Shown here piece after piece: positions 14,286 through 51,225 of a stretch of 64,000 bases of DNA. Below the pieces are notes generated by a model. The model did no database searches and was not told the DNA's origin. It saw only the letters and a program-made list of their open reading frames with translations. The DNA is taken from contig CAUYUJ010009535.1 of the NCBI GenBank assembly GCA_963575745.1, forward strand, positions 121,567-185,566. The letters run 5' to 3'. The translations under genes were made by a program, and so were the position numbers. Source of the stretch: Prorocentrum cordatum (Eukaryota > Sar > Dinophyceae > Prorocentrales > Prorocentraceae). The stretch's first letter is position 1; every line of letters begins with the position of its first letter.

Positions 14286-14310
14286 CCGTCATCATCGTCA
14301 TCACCCATTT

Positions 14311-15472
14311 CGGCACACCCCTCACACGTTTCGTGGCCCCATAGGGAGCTCCGCCGAAGGTCCCAGTGGGTGTGCCCGCATGCGTCCCGCACACCCATGT
14401 CGGCACACCCCTCACACGTTTCGTTGCCCCATAGGGAGCTCCACCGAAGGTCCCAGTGGGTGTGCCCGCATGCGTCCCGCACACCCATGTCGGCACACCC
14501 CTCACACGTTTCGTGGCCCCATAGGGAGCTCCACCGAAGGTCCCAGTGGGTGTGCCCGCATGCGTCCCGCACACCATTTCGGCACACCCTCACACGCTTC
14601 GTGGCCCCATAGGGAGCTCCACCGAAGGTCCCAGTGGGTGTGCCCGCGTGCGTCCCGCACACCCCGGCACACCCCTCACACGTTCGTGGCCCCATAGGGA
14701 GCTCCACCGAAGGTCCCAGTGGGTGTGCCCGCATGCGTCCCGCACACCCATTTCGGCACACCCCTCACACGCTTCGTGGCCCCATAGGGAGCTCCACCAA
14801 AGGTCCCAGTGGGTGTGCCCGCATGCGTCCCGCACACCAATTTCGGCACACCCCTCACACGTTTTGTGGTCCCATAAGGGAGCTCCACCGAAGGTCCCAA
14901 AGGGTGTGCCCGCATGCGTCCCGCACACCCATTTCGGCACACCCCTCACACGTTTCGTGGCCCCACAGGGAGCTCCACCGAAGGTCCCGGTGGGTGTGCC
15001 CGCACGCGTCCCGCACACCCATTTCGGCACACCCCTCACACGCTTCGTGGCCCTATAGGGAGCTCCACCGAAAGTCCTAGAGTGTGTGCCCGCATGCGTC
15101 CCGCACACCCATTTCGGGACACCCTTCACACGTTTCGCGGCCCCATAAGGGGGCTCCACCGAAGGTCCCAGTGGGTGTGCCCGCATGCGTCCCGCGCGCC
15201 CATGTCGGCACACCCCTCACACGTTTCGCGGCCCCATAGGGAGCTCCACCGAAGGTCCCAGCGGGTGTGCCCGCATGCGTCCCGCACACCCATTTTGGCA
15301 CACCCCTCACACGCTTCGTGGCCCCATGCGGAGCTCCACCGAAGGTCCCAGTGGGTGTGCCCGCATGCGTCCCGCACACCCATTTCGGCACACCCTCACA
15401 CGTTTCGCGGCCCCATAGGGAGCTCCACCGAAGGTCCCCGTGGCGCAGTCCGCATGCGTCTCCCCCACCCAG
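14311..15472 (-). repeat. 90-bp satellite array, about 13 units
   Basis: Unit starts, marked by CGGCACACCC or a variant, fall at 14311, 14401, 14491, 14580, 14665, 14754, 14844, 14935, 15025, 15115, 15206, 15296 and 15386. The period is therefore 85-91 bp and mostly 90. Each unit contains CCCCATAGGGAGCTCCACCG, CCCAGTGGGTGTGCCCGCAT and GCGTCCCGCACACCC. The reverse complement matches the monomer at 40.2-41.75 kb. Because 90 is a multiple of three, long Gly/Thr/Arg-rich frames run through it on both strands; they are not called as genes. Confidence 0.97.
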
Positions 15473-16085: not shown

Positions 16086-16271
16086 AATCACATTTGCGGT
16101 ACTCACACCTGCATATGGTTGGGTCCTTCGTCAGGCTAATTTAGTCAAGAGCGAACCTCGTCGACCCTTTTGTTCCGCGATGCCCTGGGGGAGCATTGCA
16201 TGCAGCGGCGGCAATTATATCCGACGCCCAGCTTGCTTGAATTACATGCTTTCTCCACTAGCTGGCATGTT

Positions 16272-16286
16272 TCGTGAGGCGACGTC
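16272..16286 (+). repeat. Candidate target-site duplication, 5' copy
   Basis: TCGTGAGGCGACGTC. It abuts and overlaps by two bases the first spliced-leader relict, and matches 23140-23154 (TCGCGGGGCGACGTC) at 13 of 15 positions. Confidence 0.5.
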
Positions 16287-16306
16287 CGTGGCCATTTTGG
16301 CTCAAG
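16285..16306 (+). other. Spliced-leader relict 1
   Basis: The 22-mer matches the dinoflagellate spliced leader at 21 of 22 positions; the only change is A to G at position 6. It ends in TTTTGGCTCAAG, the exact 3' end of the leader, and joins directly to relict 2. In a mature mRNA this sequence is added by trans-splicing, so its presence in the genome marks a retroposed transcript. Confidence 0.93.
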
Positions 16307-16328
16307 TCCGTAGCCGTTTTGGCACGAG
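16307..16328 (+). other. Spliced-leader relict 2
   Basis: Begins immediately after relict 1 with no spacer: TCCGTAGCCGTTTTGGC, then ACGAG. It matches the leader at 19 of 22 positions (changes at positions 10, 18 and 20). More decay than relict 1 fits an older addition, because each new trans-splicing event adds a leader 5' of the previous one. Confidence 0.85.
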
Positions 16329-16481
16329 ACCTGACCTTGCTGGCGTGGGGGAGTCCGCGGCCCCCATCTGCGACGCCTCACTGCCTGGTCAGGGAGGCAT
16401 TTTGCGTTGCAGAGCTGGTTCGCCCCAGCTACTGCTGCGTTGCTCGGGGTCCAAGCGCTCTCACCTTTCCTCTGCTCTGCG

Positions 16482-17747
16482 ATGGCCTATGGGAAGCATG
16501 GGTGTCACGGCAAGGGCAAGGGCAACCGGGCCCAGCCTGGGTGCCACGGCGGGCGCAGGCCTCCTCTGGTTCCTGGCATTCAACTCCCTGCTGACCCTGG
16601 AGGACAGCCACCTCCTTCGTCCGAGAAGGAGTGGAAGTGTCAAGCATGCGGGTGCGCCAAGAACGCTGCGAGGTTCTACTGCTGCAAGCACTGCGGCACA
16701 CGCAAGCAGCCAATGGCGCCCGACTCGGCCTGGCAAGGCAACGCCGCCATGCAGCCGTTTGGTCAAGGGCGTCTTCCAGGTTCATGCTGGGGCGGCGGCC
16801 AAAGCAAAGGCGGCTCGGCAGGGGGGCGCCAGTGCGAGCCCCAAGGGCGGCCACGGCCTGTCCAAGGGCGGCCCGCAGGCTCCAGCCCCTGGCCCCTCGC
16901 TCACGGCCGAGGAGTACGAGACCATGGCTGTGCTGTCCGAGAAGATGGGTGGCAAGCTCGCAGCCGACGCCCGCCGACGTGCTGCTCGGGCGCTCACCGA
17001 ACCCACCGTGCCCCAGAAGTCCGTTCAAGTCCGCCTCAACGAGGCGCACTGGAAGGCCGAGGGCATCAAGAAGCGGTTGGTTGTCGCCGTGGGCAAGCAT
17101 GACGAACTGGAAGCTCAGCTTGCCGCCCCGACGACGGATTACGTCAGGACCTCATCGATGCGGAGAACGAGCACAAGGCCCTGGTGCAATGTCTGGTCCA
17201 GAAGCAGGCTGGCCCCGCGGCGTGCGAAACACCAGTGTGCAAGCTCTCGCTCGAGGACATCATGGACCAGGAGCGTCTGTCCCAGGTGTTCGGCACCAAA
17301 GTGTGCGATATAATTCAAATGTGATGACCTGGAGCTCGGCGAGGAAGACAGCCTCGAGATCGAGTCCCGAGTCTTGCAGCTCAAGAAGGCCTGTCCGCCA
17401 TGGCGGTTTCTCTGTTCTCCGAGGCGAAGCAGAAGGTCGACGAGCTCAGGGCTGCCCACCGCGCACATGTCTCTCGCCTGGCGGCCAAGCGTCGGCGCAC
17501 TGAAGATGACCCTAACGAACATGGCGCTTGTCCTGGGTCAGCCGCCACGGCTGAGGCTGGCAAGGAGTCGGCAGCCCCGAGCTCGCCCGCGGGCGGCAAG
17601 GGCGCCCAGGCCTCTGGCGAGCCTGCGGCGCCTGCATCGGCAGGGGAAGGCGCAATTGGCGCTGGAAGCAGCGGGGGTCATCCTGACGCGGGCGCTGCCA
17701 GGGCCCGTGCTGACCTCATCGCAGGCGCGGGTTCCTCTTCTGATTAA
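16482..17747 (+). pseudogene. LINE ORF1: RanBP2-like zinc-finger protein, frameshifted
   Basis: The start ATG at 16482 opens MAYGKHGCHGKGKG, a basic Gly/Lys-rich N-terminus about 150 nt after the leader relicts. WKCQACGCAKNAARFYCC and KHCGTRK (about 16632-16710) form a W-x-C-x2-C...C-x2-C zinc finger of RanBP2 type, plausible for RNA binding. Frames then shift at about 16790 into a Lys/Ala-rich and helical segment (LTAEEYETMAVLSEKMGGKL), at about 17140 into LIDAENEHKALVQCLVQ, and again near 17320-17400 into SLFSEAKQKVDELRAAH, ending SSSD-stop at 17747. The helical, coiled-coil-like middle fits an ORF1 role in binding and packaging element RNA. About 420 codons if frames were continuous. Confidence 0.75.
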
Positions 17748-19026
17748 TCCCCCCCCTGAGGAGCGCGCTGATTGCCTGGGCTCGCTCGCTTCGAGGTTCG
17801 CTCGGGGCCCCTTGGCCCGTGGCTCGTCGAGCGTCCTCCAGGGGGGAAAGTTTGATTTTTGCGCTGGCATTCTCACGTTGCCCCCAGGGCCGCGCAGGCC
17901 TTCCAAAGCTCCTCTCTCTGCTGCCCAAGCTTGCCTCTGGGGCAAAGGGAGAGCCACAATCTCGTCGCGGCGTGCTGGTCGGAAGATGCACTCCCCCAAC
18001 ACGCTACTGGATTTCAGTTGCCCCAGGGCCGGGTATCCCGCGCTGACCCTGGGCAAGCCACTTTGCCTGGACACCGCTGAGGGGTCAGCCCCAGCGGGTG
18101 TCTGCTCTCCTCCCCACCATGAGCCTGGTGTCTGTTTCGAATATACAGCCTTGGAGTTTGCTGGCGGCGGGCAGCCACCGTCAGCAGCACGGGCTGCCAA
18201 GGGCGGGCCCGTCTGTTTCAAGGACCTAGAGTCCACTCACCGCGTGAGCAGCGTCAGGCTGCCGCTGCCTGCGCCCGTGGTAGGTAGGCAAGGCACCGCG
18301 GCTAGCTCAGTCTGTGATGATTCGGTGCCCCTCACGATTCGTTCCATAAACGCCAACTCGCGGGGCACCCTGAAGTCTCTCTTGGAAGATTGCCCCGCCC
18401 ATGTTGTGCTCGCTCAGGAGCACCGTCTGATTTCATCGGATGGCATTGCGCAGGCCAGCTCGTGGTGCCTTCGCCGAGGCTGGAAGTCGGTCTGGGCCCC
18501 AGCGGCCCCCACGGCGGCGCAGGATACCAGTGGTGGAGTGGCGATTTTTGTTCGGTCGTGGTTGGGGCGTCTTCAGGTCAAGGGTGCCATCGCGACGCCT
18601 GGGCGATGCATTGCGTGTTCCGTGCTCCTTCCTGGGGCTCCCCCGATCCTCGTGGCGTCAGCTTACCTTCACCACCCGGAGGGGCTTAGTGACGCCAACC
18701 TTAGCCTCCTGGCCAAGTTTGGCACGCAACTTTCGGATGTGGGCCAGCCGTGGGTGGTCGGTGCTGCGTTCAATGTTGAGCCGTCTGTGCTTGAGTCCTC
18801 ATCCTTTGTGGCGGAGCTGAGGTCTAGCCTCGCGGTCCCATCTGTCGCCACCCATTATCCTTGCGGCCCGCCCTCCACGTTTGATTTCTTTGTGCGTTCG
18901 GGAGGCTTGGCCAAAGGGGTGATGAGTGTCGAAACGCAGCCGGACACGGAGCTATCTCCCCATCGGCCCGTCCAGCTCACTTTCTCCCCCCAGCTTTCTG
19001 TTCTGAAGGCCCTGTCGTTTAGGATG

Positions 19027-19053
19027 CCCCCCCCCCCCCCCCCCCCCCCCCCC
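19027..19053 (+). repeat. 27-nt poly-C tract in ORF2 linker
   Basis: An uninterrupted run of 27 C just after the endonuclease domain. The coding frame before it (endonuclease) and after it (ALAESALACVQEGDYQGA linker) differ. Confidence 0.97.
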
Positions 19054-19246
19054 GCACTCTGCCCTGCAAAGCGGTGGTGGGCCCACGCCCGCACGACAGC
19101 TGTTGGGGCAGGGAGCTGGCTTTAGCTGAGTCCGCCCTTGCGTGTGTTCAAGAAGGGGACTACCAGGGGGCCATAACCCTCTTGGGGCCTCTCTACCGCC
19201 AGTGGGCTGATCACGCGGAGAAGGACCTCATCCCTGTTGTCGGTGT

Positions 19247-19247
<1 letters not shown>

Positions 19248-19282
<35 letters not shown>
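19248..19282 (+). repeat. 35-nt poly-C tract in ORF2 linker
   Basis: An uninterrupted run of 35 C encoding poly-Pro in the frame that follows. The frame changes back across it, into KPILAKDGKARFPTRRAIKR. Confidence 0.97.
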
Positions 19283-22200
19283 ACACCCACCCCAGACTGG
19301 GCGCTCGCGGGCTCGGCCCCCAGCTCGCGTGGAAGCCGATTCTCGCCAAGGACGGCAAAGCTCGGTTCCCCACCCGTCGAGCCATCAAGCGGCTTGGGCA
19401 CCAGCTCCGCGCTTTCATTCACGCTCGGCGAGGAGGCGACTTAGCCACCGCGTCGAGGATGCACCGTCTGCCGGTGGAGCCGCCACCCAACATCGCCACA
19501 TATCAGTGCGAGTACGGGGCCCTCTTCAGTCGGGTGGCTCAGGAGGTCTCCGCCTTATTTGATACGGACGGGGGCGTCGACTCACACGCCGACTTCTATA
19601 CTGAGGTGCATGCTGCTGCGCAAGCTGCTGGAGCCAAGTTCGCCGCGCGCAGCAGAGCGGAGTGGCCCACGTGGCTGCACCAGGGGATCGATCAAGGGGC
19701 CAAGAGGGTGCACCAGTGCATCAAAGACCCTGAGCCCTGGACCCCGTCTTCGACGCTGTCTGCGTCTGGATGCATTGTCAGCGACCCTCTGTCCTTGAAC
19801 AAGGCTGAGGGCGAGAGGTTTAGCAGCATTTGGGGCCAGGGCTCCGGAGCTCACCCCGACGGGATCCTGGGCCCCCCCCTTCCCGAGGCTCAGCGCCGAA
19901 GAAATCAGGGCCACGTCCAAGTCGCATAAAGATTCCTCTGCTGTTGCGGTGGACGGCTTCCATTGCAAGCATTTCTCTTTATTGGCGGACGCGGCACTCG
20001 AGTGCCCGAACGCTATTTTTTCTGCGATGGAAGCGGTCGGATGCCTCCCCCCGCAGATATCGGTGACCACGCTTGCGCTGCTCCCGAAACCGACTGGTGG
20101 CTACAGGCCAACTGGGGTGTTCTGCTCCTGGTTCAGGGTTTGGGGCCGCCTTCGGCGGCCCTTCGCCCTGGATTGGGAGCAGAATCACCCCAGGAGGTTG
20201 TGGGCCGCTGGTCAGTTTCGAGGAGCAGCCGACGTTGTCTGGCGTCAGTCTGTTACGGCAGGGGCAGGTTTGGCAAAGGGAGAGAGCTCGTGCAACGTGT
20301 CGTTCGACCTCAGCAAGTTCTATGGAAGCATTTGTTTGGATCAGTTGGCCATCCGCTGTTCCAAGCACGACTTCCCCTCGGCCATCGCCAGGCTCTGTAT
20401 CTATGCCTACAGGTGTGGGCGTTTCCTCTGCCTTGGAGGATGGCTGGATGGCCGCTACTTCTGCCGAGAAGGAGTCGTGGCTTGTTGTTCGATGGCCACC
20501 ACGTTCATCAGAGTGCATTGTCAGGACGGCTACGATTCTCTGCCAAAGAGGCCTGGTCTCGACCTTGACGTCTACATCGATGACCAGGGCCTCTCGTGTA
20601 CTGGGCGCCACTCTGACGTTTTTAACAACATAGTCAAAGGGGCCAAGGAGCTCCACGGGGTTGTGTCCTACTGTTTTGGGTGTTCGTTCGCCCTCGACAA
20701 AACCGCGGTGGTCGCTTCTTCGAAGGCCCTGGCGGAAGAGGTCGCTCTGGCGCTTTCCCTGTTCGAGGGTTCGTTCACTTCTAGCGCGGTCAACTTAGGT
20801 GTCGACTACGCGGCGGGCCGCGCGCTCAGGGTCCAAGGTCGCTCAGCTAAGTCTGACTATCGCATTGCCAAGGCCTCCAGGGCCGCCCGAAGGCTGAAAA
20901 AGCAGAACCGTGTCATTTCGAGATCGCACGTGCTGCGTGTGTACACTGCGGGCCCTCTCTCGGGAGTCTCGTATGGGACCGAGATCACGGGTGTAAGCGA
21001 TCTCGAGCTGTTGCAAATGCGTATGCAATTTTTTTGTGGTCAGACCCAGATCTCAATTGCGCTCTCTGACCACGCTCGCGTTGCTCGAGTGGGATCCGTG
21101 CTGGCGCGGCATGTGCCCCCATACTTAGGCGGTCGAAGGAGATCTGGCTTTGCCAGACGGGCGCGTTTCAGTGGGGCCTTCCCCTCCCCTCCCTGCGTCG
21201 CGCTTGGGCTGCTGTTTTCTCCGATCAGGCCTGCTCTTGGCGTTCGGTTGCTGGCCCGATTTCGGCCCTCCGCATGTCCCTGGTGCGCCTCGGGTGTAGC
21301 ATGGAAAATTTCATGACGATTAGGGGCGACCGTGGTTTCATCCTGCACCTGGGCATTTTCCCCCCCCGCCCTGATCAAAATTCTGGTCAAAGACAGATAC
21401 TTCAGAATGTTGGAGCGGCTCTCTGGTGAAAAAACAAAAGTATTCTGCCTCGGGTGTGCTGCGATGTTTTGCGCGAGGCATTAGCTTCGAAGAAGTACAC
21501 GACCCCTCAGAAGGCCCACATCAGGGCCTTCGCCACGGACGCGTTTTTCACTGGAGAGAGAGCGGTCAGCTTAGGCTACATCGTGAACGACAGCTGCCCT
21601 TTCTGTGGGGGCCTCGACTCAGCGTTTCATAGATTGTGGGAGTGCCCCCGCGGCCCTGTCGCCGAGCTGCGCACGAGCTTAGTGGACGACAGTACTGTTT
21701 CGGCCGCTTTGGCTGCTAAGGACTGCGTCGAGGACGCCTTCGTTTTCTCATCGGGGGCTTTCCGCCACCCCGCCGACACCTATCCTAGGCCCCTTACTGA
21801 GTCGGAGGATGGTCCGTTTCTTGCGTGGCACCGTCAAGGTATCCTCGCTCCCTCGGGCCAGCCTCCTGGACGGGAGGTCTGGGACAACGTTTTCATCGAT
21901 GGCTCGTGTTATCGCCATCCGATTCGTGAGCTGTCTAGGGCCGCCAACAGCGTTGTCATGGTTGACGACGCCGGTGGTTCCATGTGTGAGTTCAGGGCCC
22001 CTGTTTGGGCCCCTTGCCCGCAGACGACGCAGTCGGCCGAGTTTTGTTGCTGGACTTGGGCCAGCGTTCTCGCAGCGGCGCCGCTGTCTGCGCACAGTGA
22101 TTGCAGCAATGTTGCCAACTTGGCGCCTCGGCCTCGGAGCGAGCAGCTGTCGGGCCAGAGAGCTTATCCAGGGGCATTTCTGCAGATTTACGCGCAGGGA

Positions 22201-22891
22201 GGCCATCCTGCGGTGCGTTTCAAAGTGGCGGCGCATCAGGATCCGGGCGATCCGAATTTAGACGCTGCCGAGCGCTGGAGGCGCCTCGGCAATCACCACG
22301 CCGACGTGGCAGCGAAGCATGCAGTTCGCCTCCGCCCGCTCTGTCAGGACAGGCTCGATGCCGCTGACAAACTTGTGCTCTTTGCCCGCCGGACCATTCG
22401 CCTGGCCGCGCACGTGCTGCACCTATGGCCGCCGCTCGATCTCTCTGAAGCCGAGCGTCGGATACCGATGCCTGTGTCCAAGGGGGCCACCGTTGGCCAC
22501 AGATGGGAGTTCTGGTCTGGTGCGTGGAGGTGCGCGGTATGTCTCAGGGGCCGCAGATCGGACGCGAAGCCCGCCCCTGGGGTCTGCCCTCAAGGCCCCC
22601 CCCCTACACGCGGCACATCAGGGCGCGCTCGAGCATCGCACGGTTGCCCTCGATTGTTCGGATGGCTCGGTCCTGTTCATTTGCACTTGGTGCAACTGTT
22701 ATTCTTCAGGGGCCGCCATTCGGGGTCTCGCCTCCAAGTGTCTCCCTCCCCCCACTCGCGCCGCCAGATGCAGTTGGAGATACCTGTGCAAGGATAAGCA
22801 CCCCAACTATGTTTTGCGCAAGGCGGGCGTTTCAGTAGACACTGGCAACATCATACCTTGTTTCAACACCTTCTTGGGTGTGGCGGACTGA

Positions 22892-23139
22892 CTTGGGTCG
22901 CACCTTGCCCTCTCTTTCTGGCCTGTGTGTGATCCTGGGTGAGCAGCGCTCCCCTGGCGACACGGGGCGCGGCGCCGTCGCCTGCCCCTCCGTCGCCTCT
23001 TCCGCGAGGGTTTCTCCCTCAGCTCGCTGTGCGCTCATCTTGTCTAGTGGTGTATGCCAGCGAGCAGGCAAGCTGCTTCGCTCACAGCAGCTGGCTTCTG
23101 CCCCAGGAGCCTTCGAGCGGCGCAGAGCCAAAACAAAAA
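22892..23139 (+). other. LINE 3' tail with A-rich end
   Basis: About 250 bp of GC-rich noncoding sequence between the ORF2 stop and AAAACAAAAA at 23130-23139. The A-rich end is short and interrupted by one C. Confidence 0.5.
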
Positions 23140-23154
23140 TCGCGGGGCGACGTC
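23140..23154 (+). repeat. Candidate target-site duplication, 3' copy
   Basis: TCGCGGGGCGACGTC directly follows the A-rich end. It differs from 16272-16286 at positions 4 and 6 only, both transitions. Confidence 0.5.
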
Positions 23155-30118: not shown

Positions 30119-30319
30119 GTTGAGCAGGGCAGGGATAGAATGCGATTGCGCGGGCGCTGGTGCAACGCGCTTGAGTGGATCGGGGCCGGCCTGCTAAAAT
30201 CCAAACGGCGCGAGCCCAAATGGCTGCGGAGCTCGCTTGAGTTACAGCGAGGCCCGCTCGTAGCACCACGGGGGACTTGCTGAAGAGAATCCAGGCGCGA
30301 GCAGATTCGCCGGGCCAAC

Positions 30320-50189: not shown

Positions 50190-51225
50190 GGAGCCATTCC
50201 CAAACGATGACGATTCGGAGTCCCATCCCAAGCCAATTGTTCGAGGATGTCTTTACCGAAAAGGTTATTTCAGACATAATCCACCAGCGAGTTCCCAAGT
50301 GCGGCGCGGACCATTAGTAAAAACAAGTTAAGTTCAATTCATAGAAACGGTCGGCGTCAGGAGGCGCGGGCCCCGTCATCCACCACGGTGCCGTATGGCA
50401 CGACTTCGAACGTCCTCAAGTCCCTTGTTCGCTCCCCTGGAGCCTCAGTCCCCGATCCTGAGCATTCTTCCAGGGGCCTGGACTCGACGTTGCCAAGTTT
50501 CTGGGGCTTGGCACGTGGCCCAGTGAAACGTGTGCTTGGGGGCTTGACCGCGGGGTAATACACCGATTGCGTTTTTTAAAAGGTGACGTCGGAGACGCAC
50601 CGACGAATCCGATGACTCATCCCTTGACGGCAAGGCAAGCAAGGCGAGAAGTGAGAGGGAAACTATGGGGTAGAGGGGCGGCTCGTAGATAGACGTGGCT
50701 CTTGTCTGACGCTACAGAATCACCCACGGTCGTGCAAACAGCAAATAGGACTGTGCAGTCTTGAGCCAAGACAGCGTCGGATATAGCGTTCGCTACACGG
50801 CCTCTTCTTACACCTCGTTTGAACTCGGGGGGGGCGGGCCGAACGCTGGATCCAGGTCCGGATTGATGACGCCAAGTAAAGAAACAATGATCTGGACAGT
50901 GTCTTTCAACATTCCTGACAGCACGCAGTACCAAAGCACAGAAACGGCAGCGCAGAAAACAAAGGCTGGTCGCGGGTGCACTACCTCGAGACCAGCCGCA
51001 GACGATAATGGGCCGTCACGGGCGGGACCGCGTGACTACCAACAAAGAATTAGGGGGGGGCCAGCCAGTGGGCTGAGCGTCAAGGCGTGCAACGCGCGAA
51101 AGGGGGGCAACCAAGCGGTCGGATCACTTCCAAAAAACACACACACACACACACAAAAAAAAATGCCCGTGTCTGGGATCTCGTAGTTGCGCGTATCTAA
51201 GCCAAAAGCTATATATAATCAATTA
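50190..51225. other. No recognised gene; short CA and TA repeats at the end
   Basis: Mixed-composition sequence with a (CA)n at 51138-51154. No domain in the short frames. Confidence 0.5.

What the first reader, a model, noticed from the sequence alone, without database searches (positions are those of the whole stretch)
16285..16328. Two spliced leaders in tandem at the 5' end of a LINE
A 22-mer with 21/22 match to the dinoflagellate spliced leader is followed without a spacer by a second 22-mer with 19/22 match. Relict leaders in the genome are known in dinoflagellates as traces of mRNA recycling (established knowledge). Here they cap a LINE rather than a host gene, and the outer one is better preserved, which implies two successive rounds of transcription, trans-splicing and retroposition of this element family. 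It suggests the element relies on host trans-splicing for its 5' end.
Basis: partly seen in the sequence, partly recalled or inferred. Interest (0 to 1): 0.88.

Follow-up and report, generated by a model that had tools for sequence, protein, structure and literature searches.

The report
LINE that renews a borrowed leader
In a dinoflagellate genome, a family of jumping genes appears to have the host's RNA-splicing machinery put a fresh copy of the host's standard RNA start sequence on its front end at every jump, while carrying a second, altered copy of that sequence as a permanent inherited part, so counting these sequences would not count jumps.

Summary
In detail: two dinoflagellate spliced leaders (SL), 21/22 and 19/22, stand head to tail at 16285-16328 and are the 5' end of a ~6.85 kb LINE. 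The reading "two rounds, inner one decayed" is not supported. In the host genome (G000, 4.13 Gb, fitting Prorocentrum cordatum) I examined 25 distinct insertions with this 5' module: 24 have an outer SL (18 exact, 6 with one mismatch). The inner leader SL* (TCCGTAGCCGTTTTGGCACGAG) keeps the same three changes in all 24 insertions that retain that part, across two LINE families whose reverse transcriptases share only 24% of residues. Target-site duplications end at the outer SL's first bases in four copies, weakly in a fifth. Among 17 copies the outer SL shows private decay but no inherited variant. Ordinary relicts are cut to 15 nt (1,202 exact cases); full SL-SL tandems are rare (8). Two exceptional copies carry SL joined to internal positions just after AG. 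Best explanation: host trans-splicing replaces the outer leader each round at the AG ending the old one, while one old stacked leader became a fixed part of a portable LINE 5' module. No RNA data were available.

The parts
16272..16286 (+). 5' target-site duplication TCGTGAGGCGACGTC (last two bases shared with leader bases TC)
   Evidence: 13/15 match to 23140-23154; 3 of 1967 random pairs score as high
16285..16306 (+). outer spliced leader, 21/22 to DinoSL; single change A>G at 16290
   Evidence: an outer leader is present in 24 of 25 distinct insertions
16307..16328 (+). inner leader SL*, 19/22 to DinoSL; three changes shared across the family
   Evidence: the three changed positions are invariant in 24 of 24 rows; exact 21-mer occurs 20 times in the genome, 19 of them in this module
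16329..16441 (+). shared 5' head (about 113 nt), common to two LINE families; predicted to fold well as RNA
   Evidence: 131-nt SL*+head z -3.1; no compensatory pairs
16482..17102 (+). start of ORF1 (ATG, zinc-finger-like motif WKCQACGCAKNAARFYCCKHCG), then frameshifts
   Evidence: no Pfam match; motif read by eye
17314..19125 (+). frame holding the endonuclease domain (about 18349-18942)
   Evidence: PF03372 E 1.6e-5
19799..21316 (+). frame holding the reverse transcriptase domain (about 20084-20713)
   Evidence: PF00078 E 1.1e-4, below curated cut-off; 24% identical to the family-2 frame, E 6e-13
21430..22797 (+). frame holding an RNase-H-like region
   Evidence: no Pfam match here; about 21% identical to the family-2 frame, in which PF00075 scores E 1.1e-3, below cut-off
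23122..23139 (+). 3' end with A-rich tail (..CCAAAACAAAAA)
   Evidence: homology with two other copies ends at 23122 and 23129; sequence
23140..23154 (+). 3' target-site duplication TCGCGGGGCGACGTC

Best explanation
The feature is the 5' end of a non-LTR retrotransposon (LINE) that uses the host spliced leader as a renewable 5' end. Shown by sequence: cDNA was integrated up to the first or second base of a leader, because target-site duplications end there; the outer leader is the host SL in 24 of 25 insertions; SL* plus ~113 nt is an inherited module present in two LINE families. Inferred: element RNA is trans-spliced in each round at the AG that ends the old outer leader (..CTCAAG|TCCGTAG..), so the old leader is removed, a new one is added, and the layout SL|SL*|head is restored. 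Inferred: SL* began as a leader stacked once long ago and is now kept by selection, perhaps as promoter or RNA-structure sequence. The number of leaders therefore does not count rounds.
For: (1) 25 distinct insertions: 21 have outer SL | SL* | head (one SL* lacks a base), 1 has three leaders (L012/L013), 1 has SL on the last 15 nt of SL* (L024), 1 has SL directly on the head (L036), 1 has SL* but no outer SL (L020); 18 of 24 outer leaders are exact, 6 have one mismatch. The three SL* changes are invariant in 24 of 24 aligned rows. (2) TSDs end at leader base 1 or 2: L011 16/16, L021 15/15, L023 14/15, window 13/15; L014 13/15 in G-rich DNA is weak. (3) In 17 family-2 copies, private variants per copy per site are 1.4% (outer SL), 0.5% (SL*), 1.0% (head), 1.2% (body), but shared variants are 0 at 21 sites, 0 at 22 sites, 0.098 per site and 0.223 per site: the outer leader was perfect when each copy was made. 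(4) The two odd junctions, L024 (CCGTAG|) and L036 (GGGGGAG|), both fall after AG, which is true of 10 of 153 positions. (5) Genome-wide, exact SL+15-nt relicts number 1,202 and exact full SL-SL tandems 8, so the full-length arrangement of this clan points to another acceptor. (6) Family-2 RT is 24% identical to the window's while ~113 nt of head are 92-95% identical.
Against: No RNA data could be searched, so trans-splicing at 16307 is inferred. Strict selection on a DNA-encoded outer leader would also give an invariant outer leader. Against the slower head rate (0.098 per site) the lack of shared variants in either leader alone is not significant (about 2 expected each). In the 22-copy set of both families one outer-leader variant is shared, by L010 and L035. 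L020 lacks an outer SL, and L012/L013 shows that stacking does happen. What SL* does is unknown: the idea that its changes build a hairpin failed (5.4% of triple mutants fold as well).
Confidence: 0.7

Rival explanations
1. DNA-encoded leader mimic: an internal promoter starts transcription at the first base of the outer leader, the RNA is not trans-spliced, and the leader is kept identical to the host SL by selection because the mRNA needs it.
For: The trypanosomatid LINE 5' module Pr77 is an internal promoter that yields unspliced transcripts (PMC8190864, passages). SL* and head are conserved. The RT would copy any complete 5' end.
Against: L024 and L036 carry a complete SL joined to internal positions after AG, which is what trans-splicing makes. 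The outer leader equals the host SL in both families while SL* does not. Private decay of the outer leader is like that of the body, which fits renewal as well.
Confidence: 0.15
2. One reading: each leader records one retroposition round; the inner one is older and simply decayed.
For: Stacking with decay is the published model for host retrogenes (PMC3229502; PMC12014239; passages). L012/L013 has three leaders.
Against: The inner leader has the same three changes in 24 of 24 aligned rows and no shared variants in family 2. Published relicts are cut after nucleotide 7; this one is full length. A family with 10-17% body divergence must have made more than two rounds.
Confidence: 0.07
3. SL* is donated by a variant SL RNA gene, so both leaders come from trans-splicing.
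For: SL RNA genes vary in dinoflagellates (recalled; a title to this effect is in a reference list seen).
Against: All 20 exact SL* 21-mers of the assembly were looked at: 19 are followed by this head and one by CGAAG (L058); none has a GT donor. Inexact variants were not searched.
Confidence: 0.03
4. Chance, assembly or cloning artefact (GGCACGAG also occurs in a common cDNA-library adaptor, recalled).
For: The inner leader ends in GGCACGAG.
Against: Same arrangement on many contigs with different flanks and TSDs; backward controls give 0 matches.
Confidence: 0.01

Closest known systems
DinoSL relicts of recycled host mRNAs ('retrogenes') in dinoflagellates
   Same: A host spliced leader at the 5' end of a reverse-transcribed, reintegrated RNA; occasional stacked leaders.
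   Different: Published relicts are truncated after nucleotide 7, leaving 15 nt, and are counted as rounds (PMC3229502; PMC12014239; PMC6050394). Here the second leader is full length, fixed and inherited, and it belongs to a LINE, not a host gene.
Pr77 hallmark of trypanosomatid L1Tc/ingi LINEs
   Same: A short conserved 5' module shared by different retroelements of one genome, in an organism with spliced-leader trans-splicing.
   Different: Pr77 is described as promoter plus HDV-like ribozyme giving unspliced transcripts (PMC8190864). The module here contains a leader copy, is preceded by the host leader in DNA, and has no Rfam ribozyme match.
Trans-spliced transposon transcripts of Hydra
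   Same: About 30% of transposon Iso-Seq reads carry the host spliced leader (PMC12220107).
   Different: That is transcript evidence; here the leader is found in the DNA as the insertion end, with an inherited second leader.
LINEs with endonuclease, RT and RNase H
   Same: Endonuclease, RT and RNase-H-like frames, A-rich tail, target-site duplications of about 15-17 bp.
   Different: 5' end supplied by the host's spliced leader. Clade not assigned: no protein relatives found.

Membership tests
LINE (non-LTR retrotransposon) | reverse transcriptase with endonuclease domain | tested here: met
   PF03372 E 1.6e-5; PF00078 E 1.1e-4, below curated cut-off; frame homologous to the family-2 frame, E 6e-13
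LINE (non-LTR retrotransposon) | target-site duplication and A-rich 3' end | tested here: met
LINE (non-LTR retrotransposon) | absence of long terminal repeats | not tested
   no dedicated LTR search was run
LINE (non-LTR retrotransposon) | placement in a named clade | tested here: inconclusive
   no useful hits in protein searches, PDB (one chance-level match) or NCBIfam; no tree built
DinoSL relict | genomic copy of the 22-nt DinoSL at the 5' end of a retroposed sequence | tested here: met
DinoSL relict | inner relict truncated after nucleotide 7 (CCGTAG|) | tested here: not met
   inner leader runs its whole length in 23 of 25 distinct insertions (one lacks a base, L029; one has three extra, L020); it is cut at that site in L024 and absent in L036
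DinoSL relict | inner leader decays independently in each copy | tested here: not met
   three changes invariant in 24 of 24 rows; no shared variants at 22 sites in 17 family-2 copies
Pr77-like 5' module | short 5' sequence shared by different retroelement families of one genome | tested here: met
   ~113-nt head 92-95% identical between families with 24% identical RT
Pr77-like 5' module | promoter activity | not testable with these tools
   needs expression data
Pr77-like 5' module | HDV-like ribozyme | tested here: not met
   no Rfam ribozyme match at E up to 10 in 16200-16700

The most novel reading that the evidence does not exclude
These LINEs have made the host's spliced leader part of their life cycle. 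Trans-splicing restores a perfect 5' end at every round by splicing at the AG left by the previous leader, and one ancient leader copy has become a fixed functional part (SL*) of a 5' module that moves between LINE families. SL-headed LINEs, rather than host genes alone, may account for much of the 14,218 exact leader copies in this genome, and leader counts cannot be used to count retroposition rounds.
Probability: 0.5. Interest if true: 0.85.

Novelty: new variant of a known kind. Interest (0 to 1): 0.74.

Why it matters
LINEs must keep an intact 5' end at each copy; here the host's mRNA-processing machinery appears to do it. It bears on an open question, which elements drive the extensive mRNA recycling of dinoflagellates (an LTR element has been proposed, PMC6050394): LINEs that take SL-capped RNA as their natural template are obvious candidates. 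It also undercuts the use of leader number as a count of retroposition rounds.

Tried and rejected
SL* as a purpose-built hairpin: native SL folds at -5.1, SL* at -6.9 kcal/mol, but 2251 of 41580 triple mutants (5.4%) do as well; not claimed. Known RNA family or HDV-like ribozyme in the 5' module: one chance-level Rfam match only. Covariation in the head: 42 predicted pairs, none with changes on both sides; sequences too alike. Protein relatives in the protein database: none for the ORF1 region or the RT frame. Exact SL in IMG/VR: one contig, not pursued. TSD for the L019 copy: the stretch fetched ran into N, no result. L041 and L043, fetched for the 3' ends of L012 and L015, showed no homology to the window's 3' part, so those copies gave no TSD. 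Counts of SL joined directly to ACCTGACC and of wider SL* variants did not complete.

Limits: the DNA search scored 40 of 99 candidates and listed 46 matches, 30 of which became loci, so the copy number is a lower bound. 26 of those 30 loci reach the 5' head (L012 and L013 share one flank, hence 25 distinct); the other four are internal pieces, and three further head matches had no locus and were not looked at. L020, L024 and L036 were left out of the family-2 counts and L013 out of family 1; L013 and L036 are not in alignment A1. For L012 the leader next to SL* is the middle one of three. The 48 background SL loci are 48 of the 100 places listed, in contig order, not a random draw. The pattern is slightly laxer than that (it asks for 12 bases of the first leader).

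Full report
OBSERVATION. The two leaders are present as described: 16285-16306 matches the dinoflagellate spliced leader at 21 of 22 positions and 16307-16328 at 19 of 22, without spacer; no match at this level occurs in 100 shuffles. Downstream lie an endonuclease frame (PF03372, E 1.6e-5), a reverse transcriptase frame (PF00078, E 1.1e-4, under the curated cut-off) and an RNase-H-like frame, in different reading frames and interrupted by C-runs. Homology to two other copies ends at 23122 and 23129, followed by an A-rich tail and TCGCGGGGCGACGTC, a 13/15 repeat of the sequence that ends at the outer leader. In a control, 3 of 1967 random position pairs scored as high. The element thus spans about 16285-23139 and the outer leader is its 5' end.

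GENOME. The window lies in an assembly of 4,128,499,153 bases in 21,875 contigs. Its size and its contig C1 of 3,562,531 bases fit the published Prorocentrum cordatum CCMP1329 assembly, 4.15 Gb with a longest scaffold of 3.56 Mbp (PMC10666404, passages). The exact 21-nt SL occurs 14,218 times (7,201 forward, 7,017 reverse), its backward control 0 times.

OTHER COPIES. A search with 16329-17329, deliberately without the leaders, gave 46 matches with 40 of 99 candidates scored. Twenty-six of the 30 loci include the 5' head and represent 25 distinct insertions (L012 and L013 share their flank). Laid out from the head upstream: 21 show flank | SL | SL* | head; L012/L013 shows three leaders, the middle one lacking a base; L024 shows SL joined to the last 15 nt of SL*; L036 shows SL joined to the head after GGGGGAG; L020 has SL* (with three extra bases) but no outer SL. 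Eighteen of 24 outer leaders are exact and six have one mismatch. The three positions at which SL* differs from the host SL are invariant in all 24 rows of the alignment, L024's part included; 18 distinct insertions have SL* exactly, and L011, L014, L020, L029 and L032 have further private changes. The exact 21-mer occurs 20 times in the whole genome: 19 in this module (L013 counted), one (L058) before unrelated sequence; none is followed by a GT donor, so no SL RNA gene encoding exact SL* was seen.

TWO LINE FAMILIES, ONE MODULE. The window and four other insertions have the window's LINE body (the four are 77-87% identical to it). Twenty continue into another body (mostly 85-95% identical to L019, part of L030 76%). 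The other body is also LINE-like: one frame is 24% identical to the window's RT frame (E 6e-13), and it has an RNase-H-like frame (PF00075 E 1.1e-3, below cut-off); Pfam itself found no RT or endonuclease there. Yet the first ~113 nt after SL* are 92-95% identical between the families. The module has either been exchanged between LINE families or been kept far more strictly than the rest.

INSERTION ENDS. Target-site duplications were sought where both ends were available. L011: 16/16 (17 with one base shared with the leader), after AAAGCCCCCCAAAAA. L021 (family 2): AAGGGGCAACAATGG, 15/15, after GAGCAAAAA; 0 of 300 random anchors reach 13 exact. L023: 14/15 after GAGCAAAA. Window: 13/15. L014: 13/15 in G-rich DNA, weak. 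In L021 the duplication stops before the leader's first T, so all 22 leader bases were copied. L019 gave no result because of N, and the stretches fetched for L012 and L015 did not contain recognisable 3' ends.

RENEWAL RATHER THAN STACKING. In 17 family-2 copies (L020, L024, L036 left out) private variants per copy per site are 0.0140 (outer SL), 0.0053 (SL*), 0.0100 (head) and 0.0120 (body): similar decay after insertion, SL* lowest. Variants shared by two or more copies, which are probably inherited, are 0 at 21 sites of the outer SL, 0 at 22 of SL*, 0.098 per site in the head and 0.223 per site in the body. At the body rate about 4.7 would be expected in the outer SL (Poisson chance of none about 0.009, my arithmetic); at the head rate about 2, which is not significant alone. 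With 22 copies of both families one outer-SL variant is shared, by L010 and L035, which belong to different families. The outer leader was thus identical to the host SL when each copy was made. SL* is different: it departs from the host SL by three fixed changes and is inherited. The published rule is that a new leader is spliced after nucleotide 7 of the old one, leaving 15 nt (PMC3229502; PMC12014239). This genome agrees: 1,202 exact SL+15-nt tandems against 8 exact full SL-SL tandems. In the LINE clan the full-length form is the rule. The simplest acceptor is the AG that ends the previous outer leader, which replaces rather than adds a leader. L024 used the internal CCGTAG site and L036 an AG in the head; AG precedes 10 of 153 positions there.

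WIDER CONTEXT. Of 48 exact-SL loci (48 of the 100 places listed), 33 sit directly behind a trinucleotide repeat, 8 carry the 15-nt relict (at most 4 mismatches; L007, which is L024 again, is one of them) and one, L075, a full second leader (at most 7 mismatches, ungapped). L075 begins TCCGGAGCCGTTTTGGCACAGG|ACCTGACCTTACTGGC, sharing two of the three SL* changes and the start of the head, and so looks like a third, diverged bearer of the module (by eye). Fourteen of the 48 fall into one protein cluster by single linkage. In 9 of these 14, and in L002, L107 and L110, a hairpin GGANACC-NN-TRGTCC-NN-GG lies 25-26 nt after the nearest leader (41 in L066, where a 15-nt relict intervenes), with compensatory changes: 44 of 44 cells paired in 11 distinct rows, 7 changed on both sides, slid controls at most 45.5%, though 38 of 500 shuffles also reach two pairs with double changes. 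L003 and L108 also matched the search motif and were left out of that alignment. SL-headed repeat families thus seem common here, several with their own short 5' head.

LITERATURE. Seen: PMC6050394 parts 1 and 2 of 3; passages of PMC12014239, PMC11453091, PMC10666404, PMC3229502, PMC8045281, PMC12220107, PMC8190864. The 2008 paper that proposed leader recycling was not read and is known here only through these. Searches (open-licence papers only; listings) showed no title or abstract start that describes a LINE with a renewed or inherited spliced leader.

VERDICT. Observation confirmed; dependence on trans-splicing well supported by DNA; 'two rounds' not supported. What SL* does remains open; promoter or RNA-structure roles are guesses.

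Noticed in passing
window 30209-30230, minus strand: Decayed leader TCCGCAGCCATTTGGGCTCGCG (4 mismatches; 0.02 expected at this level or better) followed by CCGTTTGGATTTTAG, resembling the 15-nt relict, and then an ATG reading frame starting MLWKGHELL (read by eye): probably an old host retrogene.
   Followed up: partly
window 50760-50781, minus strand: Weaker leader-like stretch TCCGACGCTGTCTTGGCTCAAG (5 mismatches; 0.1 expected at this level or better).
   Followed up: partly
L002-L009, L066-L105: 33 of 48 sampled exact leaders sit directly behind a trinucleotide repeat, mostly (TCC)n or (GGA)n: many SL-headed elements may target such repeats.
   Followed up: partly
L002, L006, L008, L066, L074, L080, L084, L086, L090, L099, L107, L110: Covarying 4-bp hairpin GGANACC-NN-TRGTCC-NN-GG about 25 nt after the leader in another SL-headed superfamily.
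   Followed up: partly
L004/L095/L100, L088/L097, L091/L093: Further SL-headed loci share only a 47-89 nt head right after the leader at the DNA level.
   Followed up: no
L058, C16805:131990-132010: The only exact SL* outside the module: a single SL* before unrelated sequence; unexplained.
   Followed up: partly
L001 (IMG/VR contig): A public 'viral' contig carries two exact dinoflagellate leaders 147 bases apart: probably dinoflagellate DNA.
   Followed up: no
window 14302-15471: Satellite of 90-bp units upstream of the LINE; related sequence lies behind the leader at L082.
   Followed up: no
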